Assembly (NCBI GenBank): GCA_023014335.1
Contig: JAECYW010000013.1
Coordinates: forward strand, 1,240,001 to 1,304,000
Direction of reading: 5' to 3'
From: Galerina marginata
Taxonomy: Eukaryota > Basidiomycota > Agaricomycetes > Agaricales > Galerinaceae
DNA length: 64,000 nt
Below are positions 1,760 to 57,018 of the stretch, one piece after another. Position numbers and translations under genes: made by a program. The notes below the pieces were generated by a model, which was not told where the DNA came from, made no database searches, and saw only the letters and a program-made list of their open reading frames with translations. How positions within the stretch are numbered: the stretch's first letter is position 1; every line of letters begins with the position of its first letter.

Positions 1760-4700
1760 CTAATGACGTCTCACAGCAGCTACCTGGAAATCCCACCCGC
1801 CCACTAAATATTTCACCTCCACCAACCGCCGTATCTCCCGCCACCCGCCCACCGCCCCTTCCTGCCCCACTGCCCGCGCAGCAGTAGCAGCAGCCTCCTC
1901 CACCGTCGCTGCCCCCCGGTCACTCACCACATAAATGAAATCAGCAGGCGACAACAACGAGCGCAACAGCGACCCGATCAGAAACGCGATCAGCGCGACG
2001 AACACCAGTGTCGAGGCCGCGTATCCCACAGTCTGGTGCCCCGCTTCCCTACCCGCCGTCCCCGTCGTCGTCGTTGATGTAGCCGCACTTGTATCCGTAG
2101 CCGTAGCCGTCTCCGTGCTCGCAGTCGTACTAGAATCCGTAGTCCCTTCTGTAGTCTCCCCGTTTCCAGAAATAGACTCGGGCTTCACTTCCTGTACCAC
2201 AACCGTGGGGCCTCTCCCCCCAACACCCCACCTCCCAAGCCCAAGCGCCGGATACCCCTGCAAGAACCCAAACCCAAGCAATCCGCCACTCCCAGTACCC
2301 ACACCAAGTCCCCCAACAGGCCCAACTACACCCTCCGCGTTCGGCTTTCGGGTTTGCATCGCCATTCCAAGTGTCAGAATTCGGAGAACATACGTCCACA
2401 ATCAAATATAACACAACGAGAACACCGAAACAACAAAAAAAGAACCCACAAACAACCCAGAAGCGAGCCCAAGCCAAGAAAAGACAGCACACGACAACAC
2501 AATCAGACAGACAGACAGAACGTAGGAGACATACAGAATAGAATAGAAAAAACACCACGTCAGCACTAGGCCAAATCCACACCACAAACAAAAAAAACAC
2601 ATACCGTCCCCGGCGAATCCTCGCTCTTGCTCTTCCCTCGATTCTCGCTATTCACCCCTTCCTCACCCTTCTCCCCGCTCGGGTCTTCCGACACCACAGG
2701 GGTCTCTCCAAGATCAACAAGGGCTCCGAGCGCAGGCACAGGCATGTCCACCAACTCATCCGCAACCCCCACGGCAAGAGTCAGCTCCTCCGGTATCGCT
2801 ATCGGGAGCAATTCCGATTCGCTCGGCGTTCTAAGAAGCACAAGTGGCCAAAAATAGATCAGTATTCGTGCGGAGAAGCAGGTGAGTGGAATGGATCGAA
2901 GAGCAAGTCCAGGCAAGTCGATATGTAAAAAGAACGTAGAACGGAAATGAAAAGAGTGAGAAGTGAAAATGAGATGAAAGTCCAGATGAGCATCATTTAA
3001 ACGCGCAGAACGAGAACAGGGTTGTTCCAGGCAAGACGAGGCGAGACGCGCGAAAAATGGAAGGGGGCAGAGCAAGCAAGAGCGGAAGCGCGAAACAGAA
3101 CGGGGCAAGACAGCGAAAACTGAAAAAGCAAAACACATCGTCGACAAAAAGAAAAAGTCCCAAATTCCAAAATCCAAACCAAAATAAGAAAAAGATGGAC
3201 GAAGAAAATCAAAAGAAAAGTAAAAACCCACCGAACAAGCACCCCAACCCCACCAAGCCCATCCACAAGCTCCTCCCGCCCAAGCGCGCTCAGGCTCTCC
3301 TTCTCCCCCAGCACACGCGTCGCAGCGCCGTTCACATGCACCACGACCTTGTCTTTGTCTTTCTCCTTGTCCTTGTCCTTGCCTTTGCCCGGCTCCTTGG
3401 ATTTGACAGGTGTAGAAAGAGGCAGGTTCGAAGACGATGCTGAACCAGTAGTCGAAGTCGAACTCGAAGCCGAAGACAGAGGAGACAGAGGAGACACGAC
3501 CAAATCCACAACAACCCCCGCCTCCTCAAGCGCAACTAACCACTCCGGTCTCTCTTCCCCCTTCCCCTCCTCTCCTTCTTTACCCCTCCCATCCTTATCC
3601 ACCTTGACCTTCTCAGCCACCTCAACCCTCAACGGATCCTCCCACCCCTCCCCCTCCCCCTGCCCCTGCCCAGCAACTTGAAAATACCTCGCACTCGGCA
3701 CCTCAACCCGCACCAAATGCCGCACAGGCCGGCTCTCCCCCGGACCACACTCCGCCAGGCTGCTCGAGTGCAGAGGCGACGAGGGCAGCGTGTAGATGGT
3801 CGTCACAAACGGTATATCCAAATCCCGGTCTCGGTCCTGGGATTTAGCGTTGACTGCAGTCGCATTGGAAGCATCAACACCAAGGCGACCTAGCGCAACC
3901 ACCCCTCTCCCCTTCCCCTTCCCCTCCTCACCCAACCGAACCTCCACACCCTCCCTCCTCCTAGCTCTCACATCAACCCGATACCCCTTCATCTTCCCCT
4001 TCCCCTTCTCCTTATCCACACCACCCACACAAAACATCCTCGAATCAACTACAACCTCCAACACCACGAAATCCCGCTCCTTATCCTCTCTTCTCCGCGC
4101 AGTAAACCCAGAACTCGTCGTCCGTCCTCTTATCATAGGAGGATACAGCGTGTGCAGGCTCGGACTGCCCTCGGGATAGGAATGGCTGAGTGTGCCAGAC
4201 CCGGACGAGGCGGCGCGTTGGCGGATCCGGGTAGGCGATACAGGCGGGGTGGGGTGCTGCTGTTGATGCTGGCGTTGGGACGGCAAACCGGACGAATTGG
4301 ACGGAGACACTGAGATAGACGACGACGAAGGCCGAGTATGCGCCGCGGGTCGCGTCCGACTCGGCGAGCGGGGCAAGCCGTCTATCGTCCTTGACGATCG
4401 CGCATCCAGAGACGGGAAGGCAGCTGTGCCAGGGGCAGCCGTCATGACCATCGACCCAGGCATGGGCAGCGGCGTCATCACAGGGCTCGGCATCGACGCA
4501 GACCCATGTCCAGGCATCTCCGTCGCATATCGGTTATGGTTTTGGCCATGACTATGACTATGGCCATGGCTCTGACCGCCGGTATTAGCATTAGCAGAAT
4601 GCGCCCGGGCATGCGCCGCCCCATAAGTCCCCCAGCCCAGCTCCATAAGCGTCGAGTCGCTGCTTGCCGAGTGCAAGCTGCTCGTATCAGGCAAAGACGC

Positions 4701-17930: not shown

Positions 17931-20080
17931 GTTGGAACTGGACTCTAAAAGAGATACACTGAAGGAAGAGCAATCAAAAATTCAGACAAAATCTTCTTTT
18001 GCGAAGGTTTAAAATCGAATTGATGATTCGAACAGGCCAGATGTGCGTTCAATATGAAATCACAGTCGAAGCTGGAACTGAGGTGAGCTAGAGATTTGTT
18101 CAAGCTGATATTCAGGACGAGGCTAGGCGTCCTAACGTGATGTTGAATGAGCGGAAGGTTTTGAAGATAAAGACCGTGGGGGTGCAAGCGAATGACTGCT
18201 ATGGCCGTCGCGAAAGAAGAGGAGGAGAGGGATGGGGAGAACGACGAGCAAGAGGGGGAGAAGGAGGATGGAGGGTGGGAGAAAAACCGAGCCAGCCATC
18301 CACATCGGACACAAGCCGATCATTCAGGTCTCTGGCCAATCACAGATCGCCAAACTGATCACGGGAACACCGAGTTGCAAAAGAGGAACAAATAACGGTA
18401 TTTCATTAGGCTGTTCTGCTGTCATTTTTTTTTGGTGCCAAGACGACGACGACGGACAATTGATGATGGGGGGAAAAGGATCATCATCGTGTCATCGTGT
18501 TGCAGGAACAGCGCGAAAACTGTCCAGACATGTGTAAATATGACGCCGAGTGAGTACTTTGTGTCGACACCGTCTAACTCGTTCTCGTTGTCTCGATTCT
18601 CGACACCCTCCAGGACGAACTGAGTGTTCAAAAAAAAAGAAAAACAAGCCATGTTCCAAATTTGTTCTCCGTCGAACCTTACATTACATACCCCTACGTG
18701 ATCTGCCTCGACCCCGCCTCAAGGTTCAACCGAATCCCCACTCTAACTTATGTGAATCTTTCGTAAGAGGGTGGAACAGAGATCGACTTAACAGCACTCA
18801 AAATTACATACATCTTCGCACTAAAACCACGCAGTCGAACACCCAGACATCCAGCGCTCAAGCGCTCAACGTTCAACGTTCATCGCTGAAAGGCATCGAC
18901 GTCGAAGAGGTCGAAGTTTGGACGGAAAAAAAAAAACAACATCAAGCGAATCTAAAAATAGCACAACGCCCAGGTGGATGCGCCACATAAACCCCACATG
19001 GCAGGCAAGGACTTGATCGCATGGCAACCACACGATAATCCATGCTAAAGTTTAACGTTTAATTATTGAATCCCCAATCGTACTTCCAAGAACTTGACTT
19101 TTGAGAGGTCTTCAGGGCATTTAACTGAGAGGGAAGATACAAAAAATATAGAACAAGAAATAAAGTAAGTACATAAGGTAAAAAACTAAGGAGAAACTCC
19201 TGCGCCAAGTACGTATACCAAAATCACACATGATAAAATCATCCGCAATAAACCACCAACCCGACCTCGCTCACGATGCACATCTCTCTCAGGACAACAG
19301 CAGCAAGTATATAAGCCTAGCCTATCAACAATTCACACAACACAACACAACACACAAAAAGATAATTGCCAAAGATAAAACAATAAACAATAAAAAAGGA
19401 GGTTCAGTATGAACAGTTCAAACCCCAACGCCTATATCAGAAAAAAGAGTAAGCTAAAATATGCACATGGTCGTCACAAAAAATAATAACGAGGAGAGGG
19501 TTGGGAGACAGAGAAAAAGGTAATAGGCGTGGGTGGGTGGTATATTAGTAGACGAATGAACGATCTGACGAGAGGGATGGGGGGTTCGAGTCCGTGTAAT
19601 GCAGGAGGATGTTGGTTGAGTGTCGAGGGCGAAAACTGTGCGTAACCAGTAAAAGAGAGGACGGGGACCGACTATCGTCGGCCACCAAGGCGGATGGGGG
19701 GACTGAGGGCGGTAAGACGGTGAGCGTGCGTGCGGAAAAGGATGTCAAGGGGTCCAGGTAAACAGAAGGCCGATGCGATATGGGGTGGTACGGCGGGTAC
19801 GGTGCAGTGCGATGCGAATGGCGGGTCAAAAAAGAAAAAAGAGGGCATAACGCATAAAAACAGATACATAGACAAGGGCAAAATCGCATCAGAGCTCGCT
19901 GAGGAAATCACAACGGACTTCGACTCAACGAAGTCAAGTGGGGCACGCCGAGAATAGAAAGAAAGAAAAAAAAATCAATCAAACAAGCCCAACCGCACCA
20001 TCACCATCAACCCTCCCCTCCCCACCCGCGCCGAACTCCATCCACCTGGGTCCAATCTAACCGCGTCCGCAATAGCCGCC
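17931..20080. other. Gene-free interval, 2.15 kb
   Basis: This is a long spacer between two same-strand related genes. It contains the upstream region of paralogue A (about 17.93-18.9 kb) and A-rich sequence around 19.1-20.0 kb that probably includes the 3' UTR of paralogue B. Open frames in it are short and low complexity. I call no gene. Confidence 0.5.
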
Positions 20081-45738: not shown

Positions 45739-46776
45739 ATGGCTACCACCCTTAGGTCAAGAGCCCTCAGCACGACGTTCTCCGTTACATGTAGAAGAAT
45801 TGCCAGCCGACGTCTAGCAGTAGGCTATCCCACTTGCCACAACAGAAAGTCTTCAAGTTCGATCAGTGTCAGTGTTCCGATGTTCTGGTAATACGAAGTC
45901 GCCCTTGAACAGAGATGGATATATTTAGGCGCTTCAAGCTGCTTTTCGTGACCCCTCCTCGCCGTTTCACATTCCACCTGGCTCTCAAGGTCCTGAGTCG
46001 CCAGACTCGCCAGCAGATCACGCCAATTTGACAACTTTGGCATCGGAATCGCTCGACTCCCTTGATCCTTTAGAAGAAGCCCATGAGAAGCTCCGGCGTG
46101 CTGGGTTTGACCCTCAATCGTTCTGGGAACAGCGTATCGTGTGGGGAGACCACGACTCATTTCAGTGAGCCTTGTTCTGGACAAATTTCTTCGTCTTTGG
46201 AATCTCACATTCTTTTTGATAGGCATGTAAATAACGTGCGTTATGGTAAGTGCCTTTCAGCTAGAGAGTTCCCTTATAATTAACTCACCCTTTCTCTTCA
46301 GTCCGTTTCTTTGAATCAGTGAGTTTCAGAAGTTCCGGTCAGTAAGCTATTAGTTGACACCCTCGAAGGCACGTATCAAATGGATGATGTCCCTTGGGGA
46401 GGAACTCGGGGGACCAAGTAAAGCCAAAGCTATGATGAATGCTCAAGGAATCTCCTTAATACTCAAATCTATCGAAGTCCAGTTCCGGCGCCCCGTCACG
46501 TACCCTGACTCCGTATGCGCAACACGTTCTTTTCTAAGCCCGCACCTCACCCTCGTCTCGTGCTAGCTTTTAATCGGGTACCGTCCTTTACCCCCAACCA
46601 GTGAGCATGACACCGCGACATTCCACGTGGCCGCATCCGCGTATTCTCTCGCACAGAGGGCTTTTGTAGCACACGCCAAAGAAGCCCTCGTGTGGTACGA
46701 TTACGATAAACTCAAGAAATGCGACCCAGATGAGCGGGCTAAAGAGGTTTTGCGTGGAAGGATGAGCAAAGAATGA
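45739..46776 (+). CDS. Hotdog-fold acyl-CoA thioesterase-like protein, probably mitochondrial
   Basis: Model: join(45739..45867,45929..46164,46223..46245,46302..46318,46369..46512,46567..46776), 252 aa. The basic, hydroxylated N terminus (MATTLRSRALSTTFSVTCRR) resembles a mitochondrial presequence. The hotdog active-site motif is WGDHDSFQHVNNVRYVRFFESARI (read in pieces across three exons; the Asp-x-x-His-Val-Asn-Asn pattern of 4-hydroxybenzoyl-CoA thioesterases and YbgC/FcbC relatives). It is followed by the core helix and the strand ILKSIEVQFRRPVTYPD. It probably hydrolyses an acyl-CoA; the substrate is unknown. Two very short exons (23 and 17 bp) carry the catalytic loop. The donor of exon 1 (45867) was chosen for phase; 6 bp downstream is an alternative. 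Confidence 0.88.
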
Positions 46777-49135: not shown

Positions 49136-52100
49136 ATGGACCAGGATCGTTGGTCTTTGTCGACAATGTCTGCTCCTCTCGCATCTCTGGACGTCTCCAC
49201 TGGCTTATCGCCGAAAAATTTATCCTTTGGAGAAATTTTTGGCGATCGCCTCTCGAAATCTTCCATTAAATCTCTATTAGACTCCTTATGTCAAGATAAC
49301 CATTCTGCTCTCTACTCATCTGACATTCAGCGCGGGCCTTTACATCATTCAAGCCTGCGCGCATTTATTGCCGAATTTGTGTTACCTCATTCAAGGAGTC
49401 GTCTTCCTCTGGGTAAAAATGACCGTGTCATGCTCGCCTTACCTGCCGGCCCAGAAAATGCGCTAGCGTTGTTGGCACTGTCCAACTACCACACATGCGC
49501 TCCAGTCAATCCTAGTTGTACCGCTGCGGAGTTGAAGGAGGATATCTCCAGAATAGGTGCTAAGGCAGTTTTGACGACCAAAGACGCGGCCAAGCATCTC
49601 GAGTTGAAGTTGTTGCAAGACGAATTCCACTTCGAAATTATCTACATTCAAGCTCGCTCTGTGGGGCCGGCCGGGCTGTTTGACATGTCTGTACCAGGAG
49701 GCGATAGCGAAGTACCACTTCATCCCTCCGAACCGCATGGCCTCAATGATATATCCCTCGTCCTGCACACATCTGGCACCAGTGGCAAGAAAAAGGTTGT
49801 TAGGTATTCGCTTCGGACACTGTTGGTCGGAGCTTGGTGTGTGGTACAATCCTGGAATTTGAAAGCTGATGACATTAATTGTATGATCATTCCATCCTTT
49901 CCGAACTGCAAGAAAATACTGAAGTTAATTTTAGTGAATATGATGCCGCTCTTCCACGTTGGAGGGATAGTACGGAATTTATTTGCTCCGGTTCTTTCAG
50001 GAGGCAGCTCTATCGTGTGTGCTGGGTTTGACCCAACTGCATTTTGGTTACATGCTCGTGAACTCAAAGCCACATGGTGCGTTCAACCAGCATATCGAGA
50101 CCAATGATTGTCTAACTATGGAAATTGATTCTATAAAAAGGTTTTACGCGGCTCCTACGGTACATCATGCAATTCTCTCAGCGAAACCGGACGCTATTGT
50201 TCCGTCTAAAGACTTAAATATACGCCTTATCTGCAATGCAGCTGGGGGATTATTACCATCCCTTGCCTCGGAACTTAGAGACGCTTTTGGGGCGACTGTA
50301 TTACCTTCCTATGGGATGACTGAGTAAGCTCTCATGAGTAAGCTCTTCTATTTCTCATCTGATGGGTTGCGAATTTTACTCTCTAGGTGCATGCCAATTG
50401 CAACTCCTCCGATTGGTTATAAACTCGATCGGCCAGGCTGCTCGGGTGTTGTTTGCGGTCCGTATTTGTCCATACGCGAACCCAGTAACCTTGAACAACC
50501 AGTCGTGCCTGGAGCGACTGGCGCTGTTTGTGTTCGAGGCCCTCCTACTTTCGAAGGATATGAAATTTCGTCGGATATCACTGTTCCTCTTGACACATCT
50601 TCATTTTCAAGCCAAGGCTGGTTCGACTCTGGTGATATGGGGTATCTTGACGAAGATGGGTGAGTTTCTGTTCTTCGGCAATGCTTGCACCTGAGAACTT
50701 GTTATACTGACTTTGGTAAGGTATTTATATATCACAGGACGATCCAAAGAAATTATAAATAAAGGAGGAGAAGTAGTTTCACCCTTTGAAATTGAAGAAG
50801 CCGTGGCGACCACTGCGAAAGATTACGTGAAGGTGTGAGAGCTTTACCCTCTTGCTGGTCACTTTTTCATAAACATATTTTCCGATCAAACTAAGGCTTC
50901 GCTGGCCTTTTCCATTGAACATGATGTTTTACAAGAAAGCATCGGTCTGGTTGTAGTGCCCAATCACAACAAATCTCGCGTGGATCTACGCCAACTGCAT
51001 GATTTGCTCAAGTAGGTTTTTGTATATACTTTCGTCTGAATTTTTCAAATGGATGGTGATTAGGGGTCATCTCCACCCATCGAAATGGCCGTTTGCTATC
51101 GTTTACATGGATGACATCCCGAAGAACAGGTCCGTACTTTATATCAAGAGCTATGAAGCTGGACCTAATAGCGAAAGTTTGTAGTGCTGGAAAACCTTTG
51201 CGGATAGGCTTAGCCCAGCGCTTGGGAATCGGGCAGTTGACAGATCATGATCCGCTACTCCATCGTCATTTTGAAGCCATATTACCTCCAATATCTCAGT
51301 CGATCCAGGACCCAATCCTATGCCAAAGGGTTCCTGTTGACAGAGCAATTCTATGCAATGCCCTAAAGGATCTTTCCGGCGTCAATGGCGTAGCTTTGAG
51401 GCACAGCATTGACGGACCCATTGAGGCCTACGTTTCTGTCGCTCCGACATCCCCCCTTTCATCCGACAATGTTAACCGGTCAATTTCGCACTGTCTGCCA
51501 GGTTATATTATACCGACTCGCATCCACATCGTTCATGGACCGCTTCTCTATATGTCCAATGGCGACTATGACTTCGAGAGAATGGAAAAGGGATTATCAA
51601 GAAACCCTGGCGTCCAAATGACCAAGAAGCAGATACTGGTCCGCGACATTGTTGCAGATTTACTGAACATGGATTCCACGGATATACACAACGAGTCCGA
51701 CTTTTTCTTACTCGGCGGCAACTCCCTCTTGCTTGGAAAGTTGTCCTATCACCTTCGTAGACAATCTGGTGTCAATGTAGGGATCACAGAACTGTTCTCC
51801 GAATCCACTGTCCGCGGTATAGCTTCTTTGATCGAAGAAAAGGAAACCGAGGAGACAAAAACCGGCGCGGTCGATGAAGATATAAAGGATAAATTTACTC
51901 CAAGCTCGTCCAGAATGGCACTTTCTATGGACTACGATTATGAGCGAGACATCGAATATGCCCAGACTAAAGGAAGGAGGAGTCAGGATCATCCATTATG
52001 TCTCGTCGTTCAAGCAATTCCTTTTCTTTTTTTCCATCCACTGAAATCGGCATTCAGATGTAAGTAGACTTATATTTTTTGCATATTTTCCTATTTAACT

Positions 52101-55052
52101 GTTTTTTTCTAGGGTCTCTGTTGGTGTGGATGCTGTGTTATCTCGCCCCCCTGTTCAATGGCCTTTTTTGGGAACGCATGGTCGCCTTATTGACAGCTAC
52201 CTTGGTTGCGAGATTGGTTACTCGTACTGTTTCCCCCATTGTCGCCATCGTATGCAAGTGGATCATAATTGGAAGGTACAAACCAGGGAAATACAGAATG
52301 TACGCTTCCATATGTTGAATATACCGTTTGATTTGACATTGACCCTCCTTCTAGGTGGTCCATATATTACCTGCGCTGGTGGATCGTCAACCAAATCTTG
52401 AGGTAATAGCTTTAGTTCTTTACGATATCTCCGACTGACTCGTCTATATAGGACAACTGGACGAGGGATTTTTTCTTACCATCCCTCATTAGTTATACTT
52501 TATTATCGCTTGCTAGGAGCAAATATCGGACAGGACGTGCTTATAGACGAACACACGAAGCTATTCGAATGTGATCTTCTTACTTTCGAAGATGGCTGCC
52601 ACGTGGATACTAGCACGCTACGTGGGTTTTGCGTTGAGAGAAGTGGCTGCTTTACTCTTGCTCCTATAACAATCGGACGCAAAGCTTTTGTCAACACATA
52701 TACCAATATTTCTCCTGGTTCTCATATCCCAGATGGCTCAGTGTATGGGCCGCATGCATCCTCGCATGATGGGCCTTCGCCCAAATCATATGCCGCCTAC
52801 AACCGAACTCTATCACAGAAACCTACCTTATTATTACGAATTTTCGTCGCATGGCCGATAATCGCTATCGTCACTTTTATTTCATGTGCGTATTTGTCTT
52901 TATTCTCAGTATGATTCCTTATTTTCGTCCAGATATTCCATGGATGGTGGCGATTTTTATAATGCTCAACCAGGCAGAAGTGATAGTTCAGAACCTGAAC
53001 GAGCTCGAATCTGTAATCTATTGGTTTGCTGAACCGGAGCGTGTTTTATACCATTTATTGTCGACGGTCGTTCGAGCTCTTTTTAGGCCTCTTATTCAAC
53101 TGGGGTTAGGAATTATGGTCAAACGGGCGTTCGGTTTTAATACGGAAAACTCATCTATGACCGTTTCTCAGTTGTCACTTCTCAGAAGATACATCAACTC
53201 GTCGTTACTTTCCAAAGGAGCCCTCAATGATGCTTTCGCGATTCTAGGAACTCATTACGAGATTGTGTCTGTAAGGGGTGTTCCACTTCTCCAGTATCAG
53301 CTTTTCAATAACCATGCCTTTTCAGATTGTTTATAGAGCAATGGGCGCAAAAATCGGTCAACGTATATACTGGCCTGGTTCGGGTATTTTGTGTCCAGAT
53401 CCAGAATTGCTGGACATCGGCGACGACGTCGTCTTTGGATCTCGATCTGCCCTTATTACAACTGATAGGTTGGGGTCGGGGAAGATCGTGATAGAAAGTG
53501 GAGGTGGGATCTTTATCGTTCTTGAACGGGCAATTGACACTGAATCTTAAAAATGCTCCTCCCGCTCAGCCATGATAGCTGACCGAGTGATTCTCCTCCC
53601 TAAAACTCAAGTAGGACGCGGTGCTGTTATGGGTTCGGGTTCACTTGGCAAGCGCAATACTGAATACGAAGCCGGGTCGACGTGGATCGGAAATGGTAAA
53701 GTTTGGTCAATCGACAACTACGACATGCTAACCGTCAATCCATTGCAGAAAATGGGGAGGCAGTACGCCTTAGCAAGGGCCCTGGCACTGACACCGAGTC
53801 TTGCACCGACACTTGCACACCTTTCGGACGAGCTTTCTATAAGAACGATGCCTATTATTTTGTCTTTCCGTACCCAATGATCCTTTGCATCAGCATTTTG
53901 GCTACCGCGCTTTCTGCTATATATTGGACAACGGCCGCTGTAGGAACCGCTCAAATACTACGTGACGCCAGAATTCACCATCTTCATATTTTTCGACCCC
54001 GTTGGTACCGATATGGACTCCTCTACGGCCTGATTTCCATCTGCTTCGTCGTTATCCTCAGCTTCCAAGGGCTATTATCCATTCTTTGGGTAATTGCGAC
54101 GAAGTGGTTGGTGATTAAACAGCGTCGACCAGGCCGATATGACTGGGATCAAAGTAGCTACTGCCAGCGATGGCAGCTCCATCTTATCCTCTCTCGCATT
54201 ATGCACAGAGGGTATGGTTATGGTGGGGTCCTCGCTCCGTTGACAGGCTCAGCATATATTGTGTGGTATCTGCGTACTCTCGGTGCCAATATCGGTGAAA
54301 ACTGTGCAATATGGGCAGGAGGACGACCAGGTTTAATGACTGAGCCCGACCTCGTGGAGGTATGTACAATCTAGACGTATTTCGAGGAGATGCTGACCAA
54401 AGCTATTTAGCTTGGCGATGAGGTCAATCTCGACGATTGTTCCGTTGTCGCACATATCAATTCGAGAGGGAGGTTTTCATTAAATAAACTCAAGATCGGA
54501 AACCAGTATGTCAATTGTGGCACAGTGACGAAAATTTCTCTAAACTTCCGGCCGTTCAGATGTGCTATGCGCGTTGGGTCGAGGCTTCTGTCTGGGGCAT
54601 CGATGGAGGATAACAGCATGCTGGCCGAGCATACACTCCTGACCTCAGGCGACGTAGCAGATTCCAATACGGTATATTTCGGGTGGCCTGCAAAACCACT
54701 GGAGGAGCCAGCTCCAGATAACAAAACCGTAATTAATCCGGCGATTTTGACTTGTCCAATATGTCGCCGGTTCCCAAAAGATAGCTCAATCAGCGACTGC
54801 GGCCATCTATTTTGCCAAGCGTAAGTCTGTCGCCTTGATCACTTGCAAACCGGTCTCTTATTTACTTCTAGGTGTATCGCCCGTTTTTTGATAAAGCGCA
54901 AATACTGCCCAGTGTGCTTTGAACCATCGAGCCTCCAAAAGTTGAAGCGAGTTCACCTCTCTTTTACCATGGAAGGACCTCGCCAGCGTACTCCTGAAAA
55001 GTTGGAGGGTAATGGAGACTGCTTTAGTAATGAGAGTACCTGCTGTGTATAA
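49136..55052 (+). CDS. NRPS-like synthetase: adenylation, carrier, three membrane/beta-helix units, C-terminal RING finger
   Basis: Model: join(49136..49880,49935..50076,50141..50323,50387..50659,50721..50832,50896..51011,51064..51129,51185..52059,52113..52299,52355..52402,52452..52885,52933..53270,53326..53503,53570..53695,53749..54359,54411..54505,54560..54820,54872..55052), 1656 aa. Adenylation motifs: HTSGTSGKKK (about 210), SYGMTE (357), GWFDSGDMG (about 435), GRSKEIINKGGE (about 455) and the A10 lysine in AGKPLRIG (about 548). Carrier motif: FLLGGNSLL, phosphopantetheine Ser about 726. Then hydrophobic segments alternate with three hexapeptide-type beta-helix blocks starting LGANIGQDV (about 935), MGAKIGQRI (about 1178) and LGANIGENC (about 1450). 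This is the layout of Pls (epsilon-poly-L-lysine synthetase). It closes with a RING C3HC4 motif (residues 1575-1612: CPIC, DCGH, FCQAC, CPVC). Exon 17 encodes both the end of the last block and the RING, so they are one protein. Product and substrate are inferred only. Confidence 0.88.
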
Positions 55053-55146: not shown

Positions 55147-57018
55147 TCAGTCTATGATGTTGAGTTCCCTTAGGCGGGCTTTGGCAAACTGGTCCTTGTA
55201 CGTATTCCAAATTCTGTCAACAAAGGTCAAGCCCATGAAGAAGGCAAAGCACAGAAACTGATGTACTGACCTGGTAAGCTCTTCAATGTACCTCGTTTGC
55301 ACCCTCATGACCTCTTCTATTGTTGGTTTATCGCATTGCTGCACGTGTATTGGGTTTCCAACTGGAAAAAAATCGACGTCAACATCAAAGACTAGCCGAC
55401 CTTGCTGCTCCAGTCAACTTACTGACTGCGACAATCTGTCTCCTATACGGCATGAGCCCGAGGTTGTCTGATATAACAAAGGTTCATTTATCTTTTACTG
55501 GAAAACCCTTATCAAACGCACAGTTAAGCAGCCCTCTTCCATGGAACAAGGGCAATGTGAATCCAAATATCGATTGGAATTTCCGTTGGAGAGCATATAC
55601 TGTCGTCCCTTTTTCATTTGGCATTTGCTGGTAAATCTGGGTGACAGGTCGGTTACTGAGTGTGAAACGGTAGATACGATAAAAGCCTACATCATTTTCT
55701 CCAAACGAAAAGACGGGCACTAGGTCAGCTCTAGAATGGATGAAATCGTGAATATATGTGCTAGTCCTCGACTTGGGTGGTGAACGAACCCATGCTGGAT
55801 CGCAAGTTTGATGAAACCCAATCTGAAGTTAAAACACCAATCAACATCAAAACCTCCCGAGGACGATGGTAACTTTAGGGACGCACCTTTTTCTCAGCGT
55901 CAAATCCGCTGTCCCTGGATGGGCACTCAGGCTCTCTGCCGCCCCACCCACTACAATCGTAATCGCAGAACCTGGCCCGCTTTTCAGGATATTCGAACAC
56001 GATTCTTTGCTGACGCTACACACTCCGAGACTCAAAAGAATATCTCGGTAGAATGGCATTTGAAAATTTGTCGTTAAGGTTAGGAGGTGGGGCTTGATGC
56101 CAGGAAACGCTGCGGAGAAACCAGTGGCTGTATTACACAAAAGAAGGTCAGTATATGCGTGTGATTTGGGGAGATGAGCGTGCAAACCTTCAGTGGCAAA
56201 AGTGGCCAATGCCCCCCTGTTTCCAACAAGACTTTAGAATATGTTTAATGATGGTAGTTGATCAACCTACATGCCAATAATACCTTGAGGCTAATGAGCC
56301 AAGTCCCAGTTGCAGAGAAATTCGAGACATACCATGGGGATGATAACCAAACACGTATGGTCGATCTGGAGGTAAGTCGGCCTCCTATACCAGTGCAAGA
56401 ATAAGCTCTCTTGGATAGTCTCCACAAATAGAGACTGGTACCTTTAGAAATCTATTACATCATCGGCAAGGGCAACCAAGAGGACAGGAAAGGGAACTCA
56501 CGAAGCAGGATAATAATCTGCAAAATACCTCCAAAATCTCATGGATCGGAACCACTGGCTACTTCGCCCCCCGCGCTCCGGCGAAGTGTCAATCCATCTA
56601 GCCCATATGAAATAAATGGCCAATAATGGCCACAGAGGTGGGATTGACCTGAACAGAAAATGCCATAAGAAAAAGCTAAGATAAGATCAACAGCAGGGCG
56701 TAACCTACAATAGCAATAACCACGCGCAGGTCGTGATCACAATCATCACCGACCATATTGCAACCGCGAGCATCTGCAGCCTTCTCTTCCGGGGTATCTT
56801 TGCTGGGACAAAGCTTAACGACACAATTAGCCATTGCGCACAGGACACAAGTCAAAAGAGGCGTACTTGAGGTTGGCATGAAGTGCAGCCACAGGATTCG
56901 GGACACTCAGAGGCGTTGTCGCTAGTTTCGATAGCCTATCTTTCAAAGATCCCGCTGAGAGTGTCCGTGAGTTCGTCGTGAAACTAGGTCGTAGGGCGTT
57001 TGACTCTATTTTGGACAT
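55147..57018 (-). CDS. Diacylglycerol acyltransferase, DGAT2 family
   Basis: Model: complement(join(55147..55213,55271..55361,55423..55467,55522..55636,55691..55730,55790..55822,55887..56127,56188..56216,56271..56283,56333..56384,56436..56451,56502..56648,56709..56813,56867..57018)), 381 aa in one frame. It acylates diacylglycerol with acyl-CoA to make triacylglycerol in the ER and at lipid droplets. Motifs: PRKRRLQ before the N-terminal transmembrane hairpin (WSVMIVITTCAW, IPPLWPLLAIY), YFADYYPASF, the catalytic YHPHGIIGMGA (HPHG 155-158), GIKPHLLTLTTNF, FYRDILLSLGVCSVSK, VGGAAESLSA, PVFSFGEND, FHGRGLLNYNLGLMPYRR and the end LRELNIID. Two exons are tiny (16 and 13 bp); family conservation across them supports both. 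Its stop is 94 bp from the stop of the NRPS-like gene (tail-to-tail). Confidence 0.93.

What the first reader, a model, noticed from the sequence alone, without database searches (positions are those of the whole stretch)
54560..55052. RING finger fused to the end of the Pls-like synthetase
Exon 17 runs uninterrupted from the last beta-helix turn (VYFGWPAKPLEE) into CPIC, DCGH and FCQA. Exon 18 completes the C3HC4 pattern with C and CPVC. I know of no Pls or NRPS carrying a ubiquitin-ligase-type domain. It could make a membrane-tethered E3 that regulates or degrades the synthetase or its carrier, or that ubiquitinates membrane partners. It could also be a zinc scaffold. The tail ends in two adjacent cysteines (TCCV).
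Basis: seen in the sequence. Interest (0 to 1): 0.85.

Follow-up and report, generated by a model that had tools for sequence, protein, structure and literature searches.

The report
RING-tailed membrane synthetase of mushrooms
A mushroom gene for a membrane enzyme that loads small acids onto a carrier really does end in a ubiquitin-ligase-type RING finger, and many related mushrooms have the same fusion, so it is an old, shared design and not an accident of one genome.

Summary
Confirmed. An 18-exon gene (49166-55052, +) with only GT-AG introns reads as 1646 aa: adenylation, carrier, three left-handed beta-helix domains alternating with three pairs of membrane helices, then a C3HC4 RING (aa 1565-1602; Pfam zf-C3HC4 E=4.9e-8). 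The RING is split by a 51-nt intron whose retention stops translation at FCQA*.

The fusion is not local. Of 141 relatives listed, 62 carry a complete RING and 17 a half RING; 9 of those 17 models stop 1-2 residues after the fifth zinc ligand, where the window's intron lies. The nearest relative (Galerina marginata) keeps the intron as coding, so Pfam misses its RING. On a tree, with short models left out, one change separates RING-type from other, mostly coiled-coil-like, tails.

Two corrections. The adenylation domain is nearest to oxalate/acyl-CoA ligases, so "Pls-like" fits the membrane half only. TCCV is not conserved.

Best reading: a membrane-tethered E2-recruiting module, probably a weak E3. 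The usual basic linchpin is absent (4 of 63 rows Arg/Lys; Phe here). Ubiquitination is untested. Six paper searches listed no report of the fusion.

The parts
49166..55052 (+). 18-exon gene, 1646 aa: A - T - TM1/2 - LbH1 - TM3/4 - LbH2 - TM5/6 - LbH3 - RING
   Evidence: homologous proteins
49409..51212 (+). adenylation domain (aa 82-545), acyl/oxalate-CoA ligase type
   Evidence: Pfam AMP-binding 9.2e-44; 5ie0 oxalate-CoA ligase 7.4e-55
51639..51833 (+). phosphopantetheine carrier domain (aa 688-752, LGGNSL)
   Evidence: Pfam PP-binding 7.9e-11; coordinates
51993..52267 (+). membrane helices 1 and 2 (aa 806-879)
   Evidence: helices of the AF2 model of relative P0012 mapped to the query
52516..52773 (+). 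left-handed beta-helix domain 1 (aa 928-1013)
   Evidence: mapped
52828..53132 (+). membrane helices 3 and 4 (aa 1032-1117)
   Evidence: mapped; hydropathy peak at aa 1042-1060
53344..53679 (+). left-handed beta-helix domain 2 (aa 1170-1259), Pfam Hexapep
53871..54116 (+). membrane helices 5 and 6 (aa 1306-1387)
   Evidence: mapped; hydropathy peaks at aa 1302-1320 and 1362-1380
54279..54698 (+). left-handed beta-helix domain 3 (aa 1442-1546), ending in the conserved Y-x-GWPAK
   Evidence: (3ixc, 4e-8)
54560..54820 (+). exon 17: end of beta-helix 3, linker, first half of the RING (CPIC..CGHLFCQA)
54753..54917 (+). C3HC4 RING finger (aa 1565-1602), interrupted by intron 17
54821..54871 (+). intron 17 (51 nt, GTAAGT..CTAG, phase 2) inside the RING; retention gives an immediate stop (FCQA*)
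   Evidence: 9 relatives' gene models end at the same place
54872..55052 (+). exon 18: C6 to C8 of the RING, conserved R/K-V/I-H/Y-L/P-SF motif, non-conserved tail ending TCCV, stop

Best explanation
The gene encodes an integral-membrane, carrier-dependent acyl transferase. An acyl-CoA-ligase-type adenylation domain charges the carrier with a carboxylic acid, and three beta-helix acyltransferase-like domains, each hung between membrane helices, pass it on. In one lineage of mushroom-forming fungi the protein gained, or kept, a RING-HC domain after the last beta-helix. The RING most likely recruits an E2~ubiquitin to the membrane next to the synthetase, as a low-activity or partner-dependent E3 that marks the synthetase itself or close partners. 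Shown: gene structure by homology and splice signals, RING ligands, conservation in relatives. Predicted: fold and membrane helices. Inferred: a single change of tail type, cytosolic side, E2 binding, ligase activity, cis-regulation, the substrate.
For: All 8 zinc ligands occur in 62 of 141 relatives listed. Positions recalled as facing E2 are kept in the 63 RING rows, query included: M, I, L, V, F or A at C1+2 in 60, I, L or V after C6 in 63, Pro in CPxC in 59. The commonest linchpin-place residue, Met (23 of 63), is one that kept activity in RNF38 (R454M; PMC12326332, section 8 read). The RING region of relative P0012 is predicted at block pLDDT 79-92 (residues 1041-1090) with a hairpin and helix. 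The best PDB sequence matches are E3 or E3-partner RINGs: RING2/BMI1, BRE1, RNF4, TRIM. With 37 short models left out, one change on the tree divides RING-type tails from other tails.
Against: The linchpin place is Arg or Lys in only 4 of 63 rows (His in 1) and is Phe in the query; in RNF38, linchpin variants tested other than Arg, Lys and Met showed minimal activity, and Phe is not among those named in the sections I read. C6+4, another E2 contact as recalled (Trp in c-Cbl), is Ala, Ser, Thr or Gly in 46 of 63 rows, though Phe in the query. Top matches include BMI1, recalled as an E3 partner rather than a strong E3. Three relatives have decayed or broken RINGs (P0081, P0085, P0088), and other members have mostly coiled-coil-like tails in its place, so the domain is dispensable in some lineages. 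No transcript, E2-binding or activity data.
Confidence: 0.55

Rival explanations
1. The RING is a zinc-stabilised dimerisation or docking module without ubiquitin chemistry; it holds the synthetase together or binds partners, as the coiled-coil-like tail may do in polypores.
For: At the same place 20 of the 22 rows with another long tail (polypores, Gloeophyllum-type fungi, Jaapia) have a tail with at least 56 percent E, K, R, Q, D, L or H, which looks coiled-coil-like (no coiled-coil program was run). The linchpin place is not Arg or Lys in 59 of 63 rows. BMI1-like and BRE1-like RINGs, recalled as dimerising, are among the closest PDB sequences.
Against: Several residues recalled as E2-facing (hydrophobic C1+2, Ile after C6, Pro in CPxC) stay conserved, which a pure scaffold would not obviously require.
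Confidence: 0.3
2. Intron 17 is a switch: spliced mRNA gives a RING-bearing, short-lived synthetase, and intron-retained mRNA gives a stable one that ends at half a RING.
For: Retention gives a stop right after the donor. Nine of 120 relatives' models end at that place, though the source calls one of them, P0065, partial. The G. marginata protein has 17 extra residues that match the window's translated intron. Papers on mushroom splicing that hold the term intron retention were listed, not read.
Against: Gene predictors often drop short last exons (recalled), so the truncated models may be artefacts; no RNA reads were available; the donor here is the consensus GTAAGT.
Confidence: 0.1
3. The RING exons belong to a separate gene and were joined to the synthetase by prediction only.
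For: None found; transcript data were not available.
Against: Exon 17 encodes both the last beta-helix turns and half of the RING in one open frame, and 62 of 141 relatives listed show the same order.
Confidence: 0.02

Closest known systems
Pls, bacterial epsilon-poly-L-lysine synthetase, and fungal Epls (Epichloe); NCBIfam TIGR02353 Pls/PosA
   Same: A and T domains followed by membrane helices and tandem C1, C2, C3 domains (architecture of Pls and Epls from passages of PMC7179176)
   Different: Adenylation domain of acyl-CoA-ligase type; TIGR02353 score 185.7, below its cutoff of 423.1; a C-terminal RING, a word absent from the Epls paper's held main text
Oxalate-CoA ligases (PDB 5ie0, 6qjz, 8aff; recalled as AAE3/Pcs60)
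   Same: The three best solved matches of the adenylation domain
   Different: Recalled as stand-alone CoA ligases; here fused to a carrier, membrane helices and beta-helices
RING-HC E3 ligases and E3 partners (BMI1/RING2, BRE1, RNF4, TRIM, PEX10)
   Same: C3HC4 ligands and spacing, conserved CPxC proline
   Different: Linchpin place not Arg or Lys in 59 of 63 rows; fused to a biosynthetic enzyme
Polypore members of the same family (such as Trametes gibbosa, P0113)
   Same: Same A, carrier and beta-helix domains; P0113 is 60 percent identical over 84 percent of the searched region
   Different: Coiled-coil-like tail without cysteines in place of the RING (P0113)

Membership tests
RING-HC (C3HC4) finger | eight zinc ligands with C3HC4 order and spacing | tested here: met
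RING-HC (C3HC4) finger | beta-beta-alpha zinc fold | tested here: inconclusive
   hairpin and helix at block pLDDT 79-92 in the model of relative P0012; the RING was not folded or searched alone, and says such parts are barely tested
RING E3 ubiquitin ligase | E2-facing hydrophobic residues and CPxC proline (positions recalled) | tested here: met
   query has I at C1+2, I after C6, F at C6+4, P in CPVC; in the family C6+4 is small in 46 of 63 rows
RING E3 ubiquitin ligase | basic linchpin after C8 (common, not universal) | tested here: not met
   query has Phe; Arg or Lys in 4 of 63 rows
RING E3 ubiquitin ligase | E2-dependent ubiquitin transfer | not testable with these tools
   needs biochemistry
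Pls/PosA (TIGR02353) | score above the curated cutoff of 423.1 | tested here: not met
   185.7 bits in 3 stretches
Pls/PosA (TIGR02353) | A-T, six membrane helices, three tandem C domains | tested here: met
   A and T in the query by Pfam; helices and three beta-helices in the model of relative P0012, which lacks most of the A domain
Pls/PosA (TIGR02353) | amino-acid-type adenylation domain | tested here: not met
   closest to acyl/oxalate-CoA ligases; His in LFHVGG where amino-acid A domains have Asp (recalled motif)

The most novel reading that the evidence does not exclude
A biosynthetic assembly enzyme with its own built-in ubiquitin ligase: the RING, held beside the acyl transferases at the membrane, ubiquitinates the synthetase, its product or the acceptor lipid or glycan, so that product formation and ubiquitin tagging are coupled in one polypeptide, possibly switched by splicing of the intron inside the RING.
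Probability: 0.12. Interest if true: 0.9.

Novelty: new variant of a known kind. Interest (0 to 1): 0.62.

Why it matters
It would tie ubiquitin signalling directly to a carrier-protein biosynthetic enzyme, a pairing for which no paper was listed in the searches made here. The fusion is shared across many mushroom genera, so it can be tested in tractable species. The nearest relative's RING is hidden by its gene model, and others are cut short, so the fusion is easily overlooked.

Tried and rejected
Local fusion artefact: rejected by 62 complete and 17 half RINGs among the 141 relatives listed. TCCV as a lipidation signal: not conserved. Second copy in the genome: none found; the tail alone also hit three RING-like places on other contigs at E 7e-5 to 1e-3, not followed up. 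Counting the 37 short models as lacking the RING gives 14 changes on the tree against 1 when they are left out; many may be truncated models, so the number of true losses is unknown, and with no outgroup the direction (gain of RING or gain of another tail) is open. The tree is a quick one with SH-aLRT support only, and the program warned of long branches (P0092; P0087 with P0097). A search with residues 1540-1647 of P0074 found only P0074 itself among 11 candidates. Foldseek and VIA-align matched the carrier and beta-helices and did not list a RING, which says nothing against one.

Bias: the two large protein searches listed 120 of 737 and 120 of 970 hits, ranked by likeness to RING-bearing queries, so the RING fraction is not a family frequency.

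Full report
What was checked. I rebuilt the gene from the sequence as 18 exons, 49166-55052, + strand, introns 47-66 nt, all GT-AG, 1646 aa. Exon 17 ends in half of a RING and exon 18 completes it. Pfam finds AMP-binding (9.2e-44), PP-binding (7.9e-11), Hexapep (8.2e-7) and zf-C3HC4 (4.9e-8, 33.1 bits, cutoff 21) along the protein. A wide PROSITE-like RING pattern, recalled, arose in 3 of 20000 shuffles of the 147-aa tail.

The splice sites. Retaining intron 17 gives FCQA*, so the RING exists only if it is spliced. Intron 16 is open in frame, but relatives match the spliced form (consensus). No RNA data were available.

The organism. The nearest protein is from Galerina marginata CBS 339.88 (P0001), 98 percent identical over 743 columns of the tree alignment, so I infer a Galerina or something very near. 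A search of the own genome with the last 378 aa of the beta-helix part matched only this gene.

Conservation of the fusion. Searching with residues 1050-1646 gave 737 hits, 120 listed; searching with P0074 residues 1000-1647 gave 970, 120 listed, 21 of them new. Of the 141 relatives listed, 62 have a strict RING, 17 a half RING and 62 none (the query makes 63 RING rows). RING bearers include Crassisporium, Flammula, Agrocybe, Psilocybe, Crepidotus, Panaeolus, Hypsizygus, Mycena, Moniliophthora, Lentinula, Macrolepiota, Athelia and Taiwanofungus (names, RING). The conserved block continues past the RING as R/K-I/V-Y/H-P/L-S-F; a loose pattern for it matched 54 of 63 rows.

Half RINGs. Nine of the 17 half RINGs stop 1-2 residues after the fifth ligand (P0004, P0007, P0009, P0025, P0047, P0065, P0072, P0078, P0100); the source calls P0065 partial. 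In the window that is where intron 17 begins, and a phase-2 GTAAG donor yields TAA there. I had no DNA of these relatives. These models are probably annotations that miss the last exon, though real intron retention is possible. P0001 has 17 extra residues there that match the window's translated intron, and its Pfam list lacks the RING.

Rows without a RING. Of 62, 28 end under 30 aa after Y-x-GWP, 32 go on for 30 aa or more and 2 lack the motif. For the tree I sorted the 62 as 37 short, 22 with another tail of 60 aa or more, and 3 decayed or broken RINGs (P0081, P0085, P0088). In 20 of the 22 other tails at least 56 percent of residues are E, K, R, Q, D, L or H, which looks coiled-coil-like; P0138 and P0140 do not (no coiled-coil program was run).

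Tree. On residues 800-1545, RING columns left out, 142 rows: with the 37 short rows uncounted and half and decayed RINGs counted as present, one change separates RING-type from other tails; with the short rows counted as absent, 14 changes are needed. The tree is a quick one, SH-aLRT support only, with a midpoint root and long-branch warnings, so the direction of change is not known. Taiwanofungus (P0074) groups with Plicaturopsis (P0111, a short model) and, with Athelia, falls on the polypore side while carrying a RING.

Structure. The AlphaFold2 model of P0012 (Panaeolus, 1102 aa, most of the A domain missing) from a 55-row alignment has mean pLDDT 82.9 and pTM 0.71: six long helices or helix pairs, three beta-helices, and a RING region at block pLDDT 79-92 (residues 1041-1090), falling to 64 and 33 at the very end. 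Foldseek and VIA-align match the carrier domain and hexapeptide acyltransferases; the RING was not searched alone. That the RING is cytosolic is inferred from Pls topology, recalled.

The synthetase half. The A domain is closest to oxalate-CoA ligases in the PDB (5ie0, 7.4e-55) and to a FadD7-type model in NCBIfam (205.7 bits, below its cutoff of 650). TIGR02353 scores 185.7 against a cutoff of 423.1. The motif LFHVGG has His where amino-acid A domains have Asp (recalled). So the enzyme probably activates a carboxylic acid, not a lysine-like amino acid, and its product is unknown. The Epichloe Epls paper (PMC7179176, passages read) describes an epsilon-polylysine synthetase with the same A-T-C1-C2-C3 order; its held main text has no word beginning with 'ring' or 'basidiomyc'.

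Is it an E3? For: C1+2 is M, I, L, V, F or A in 60 of 63, the residue after C6 is I, L or V in 63 of 63, and CPxC proline holds in 59 of 63. Against: C8+1, the linchpin place, is Met 23, Ser 12, Thr 10, Phe 6, Ala 4, Arg 3, and one each of Lys, Glu, Val, His and Leu; C6+4 is Ala, Ser, Thr or Gly in 46 of 63. In RNF38, Arg was best, Lys and Met next, and the other variants tested were minimal (PMC12326332, sections 6 and 8 and passages read). The Phe of the window protein is not among the variants named there. I therefore favour an E2-recruiting module of low or partner-dependent activity, at 0.55.

Literature. Six searches for the fusion listed no paper that describes it by title or abstract start; I opened none of those listed, and one search listed none. 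The domain is visible in precomputed Pfam lists, so the fusion is unremarked in what I searched, not hidden.

Neighbourhood. A thioesterase-like gene lies upstream and a diacylglycerol-acyltransferase-like gene downstream on the other strand. Whether they work with the synthetase was not tested.

Noticed in passing
window about 46030-46776 (+): Fragments of a thioesterase-like gene (4HBT_2, 8.7e-20 on a hand-joined protein whose first ~12 letters are wrong) upstream of the synthetase.
   Followed up: partly
window about 55484-56233 (-): Diacylglycerol acyltransferase-like exons (DAGAT, 4.3e-24 and 2.9e-12) just past the synthetase's stop, convergent with it.
   Followed up: partly
P0113, P0117, P0121-P0129 and others (C-terminal ends): Polypore relatives carry an E/K/R/L-rich, coiled-coil-like tail where mushrooms carry the RING; P0125 and a few others are short models.
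   Followed up: partly
P0081, P0085 (Lentinula), C-terminal ends: RING with lost zinc ligands, apparently decaying, while two Lentinula relatives (P0071, P0077) keep all eight.
   Followed up: no
Mycena proteins: Several Mycena species hold more than one copy, and some copies end just before the RING; true loss and truncated models cannot be told apart here.
   Followed up: partly
window 18001-20000 and 2001-4000: High AT skew in these 2-kb bins (0.299 and 0.261), out of line with most of the window.
   Followed up: no
L004, L005, L006 (own genome, other contigs): Weak RING-like matches to the tail (E 7e-5 to 1e-3), possible cousins of the RING; not identified.
   Followed up: no
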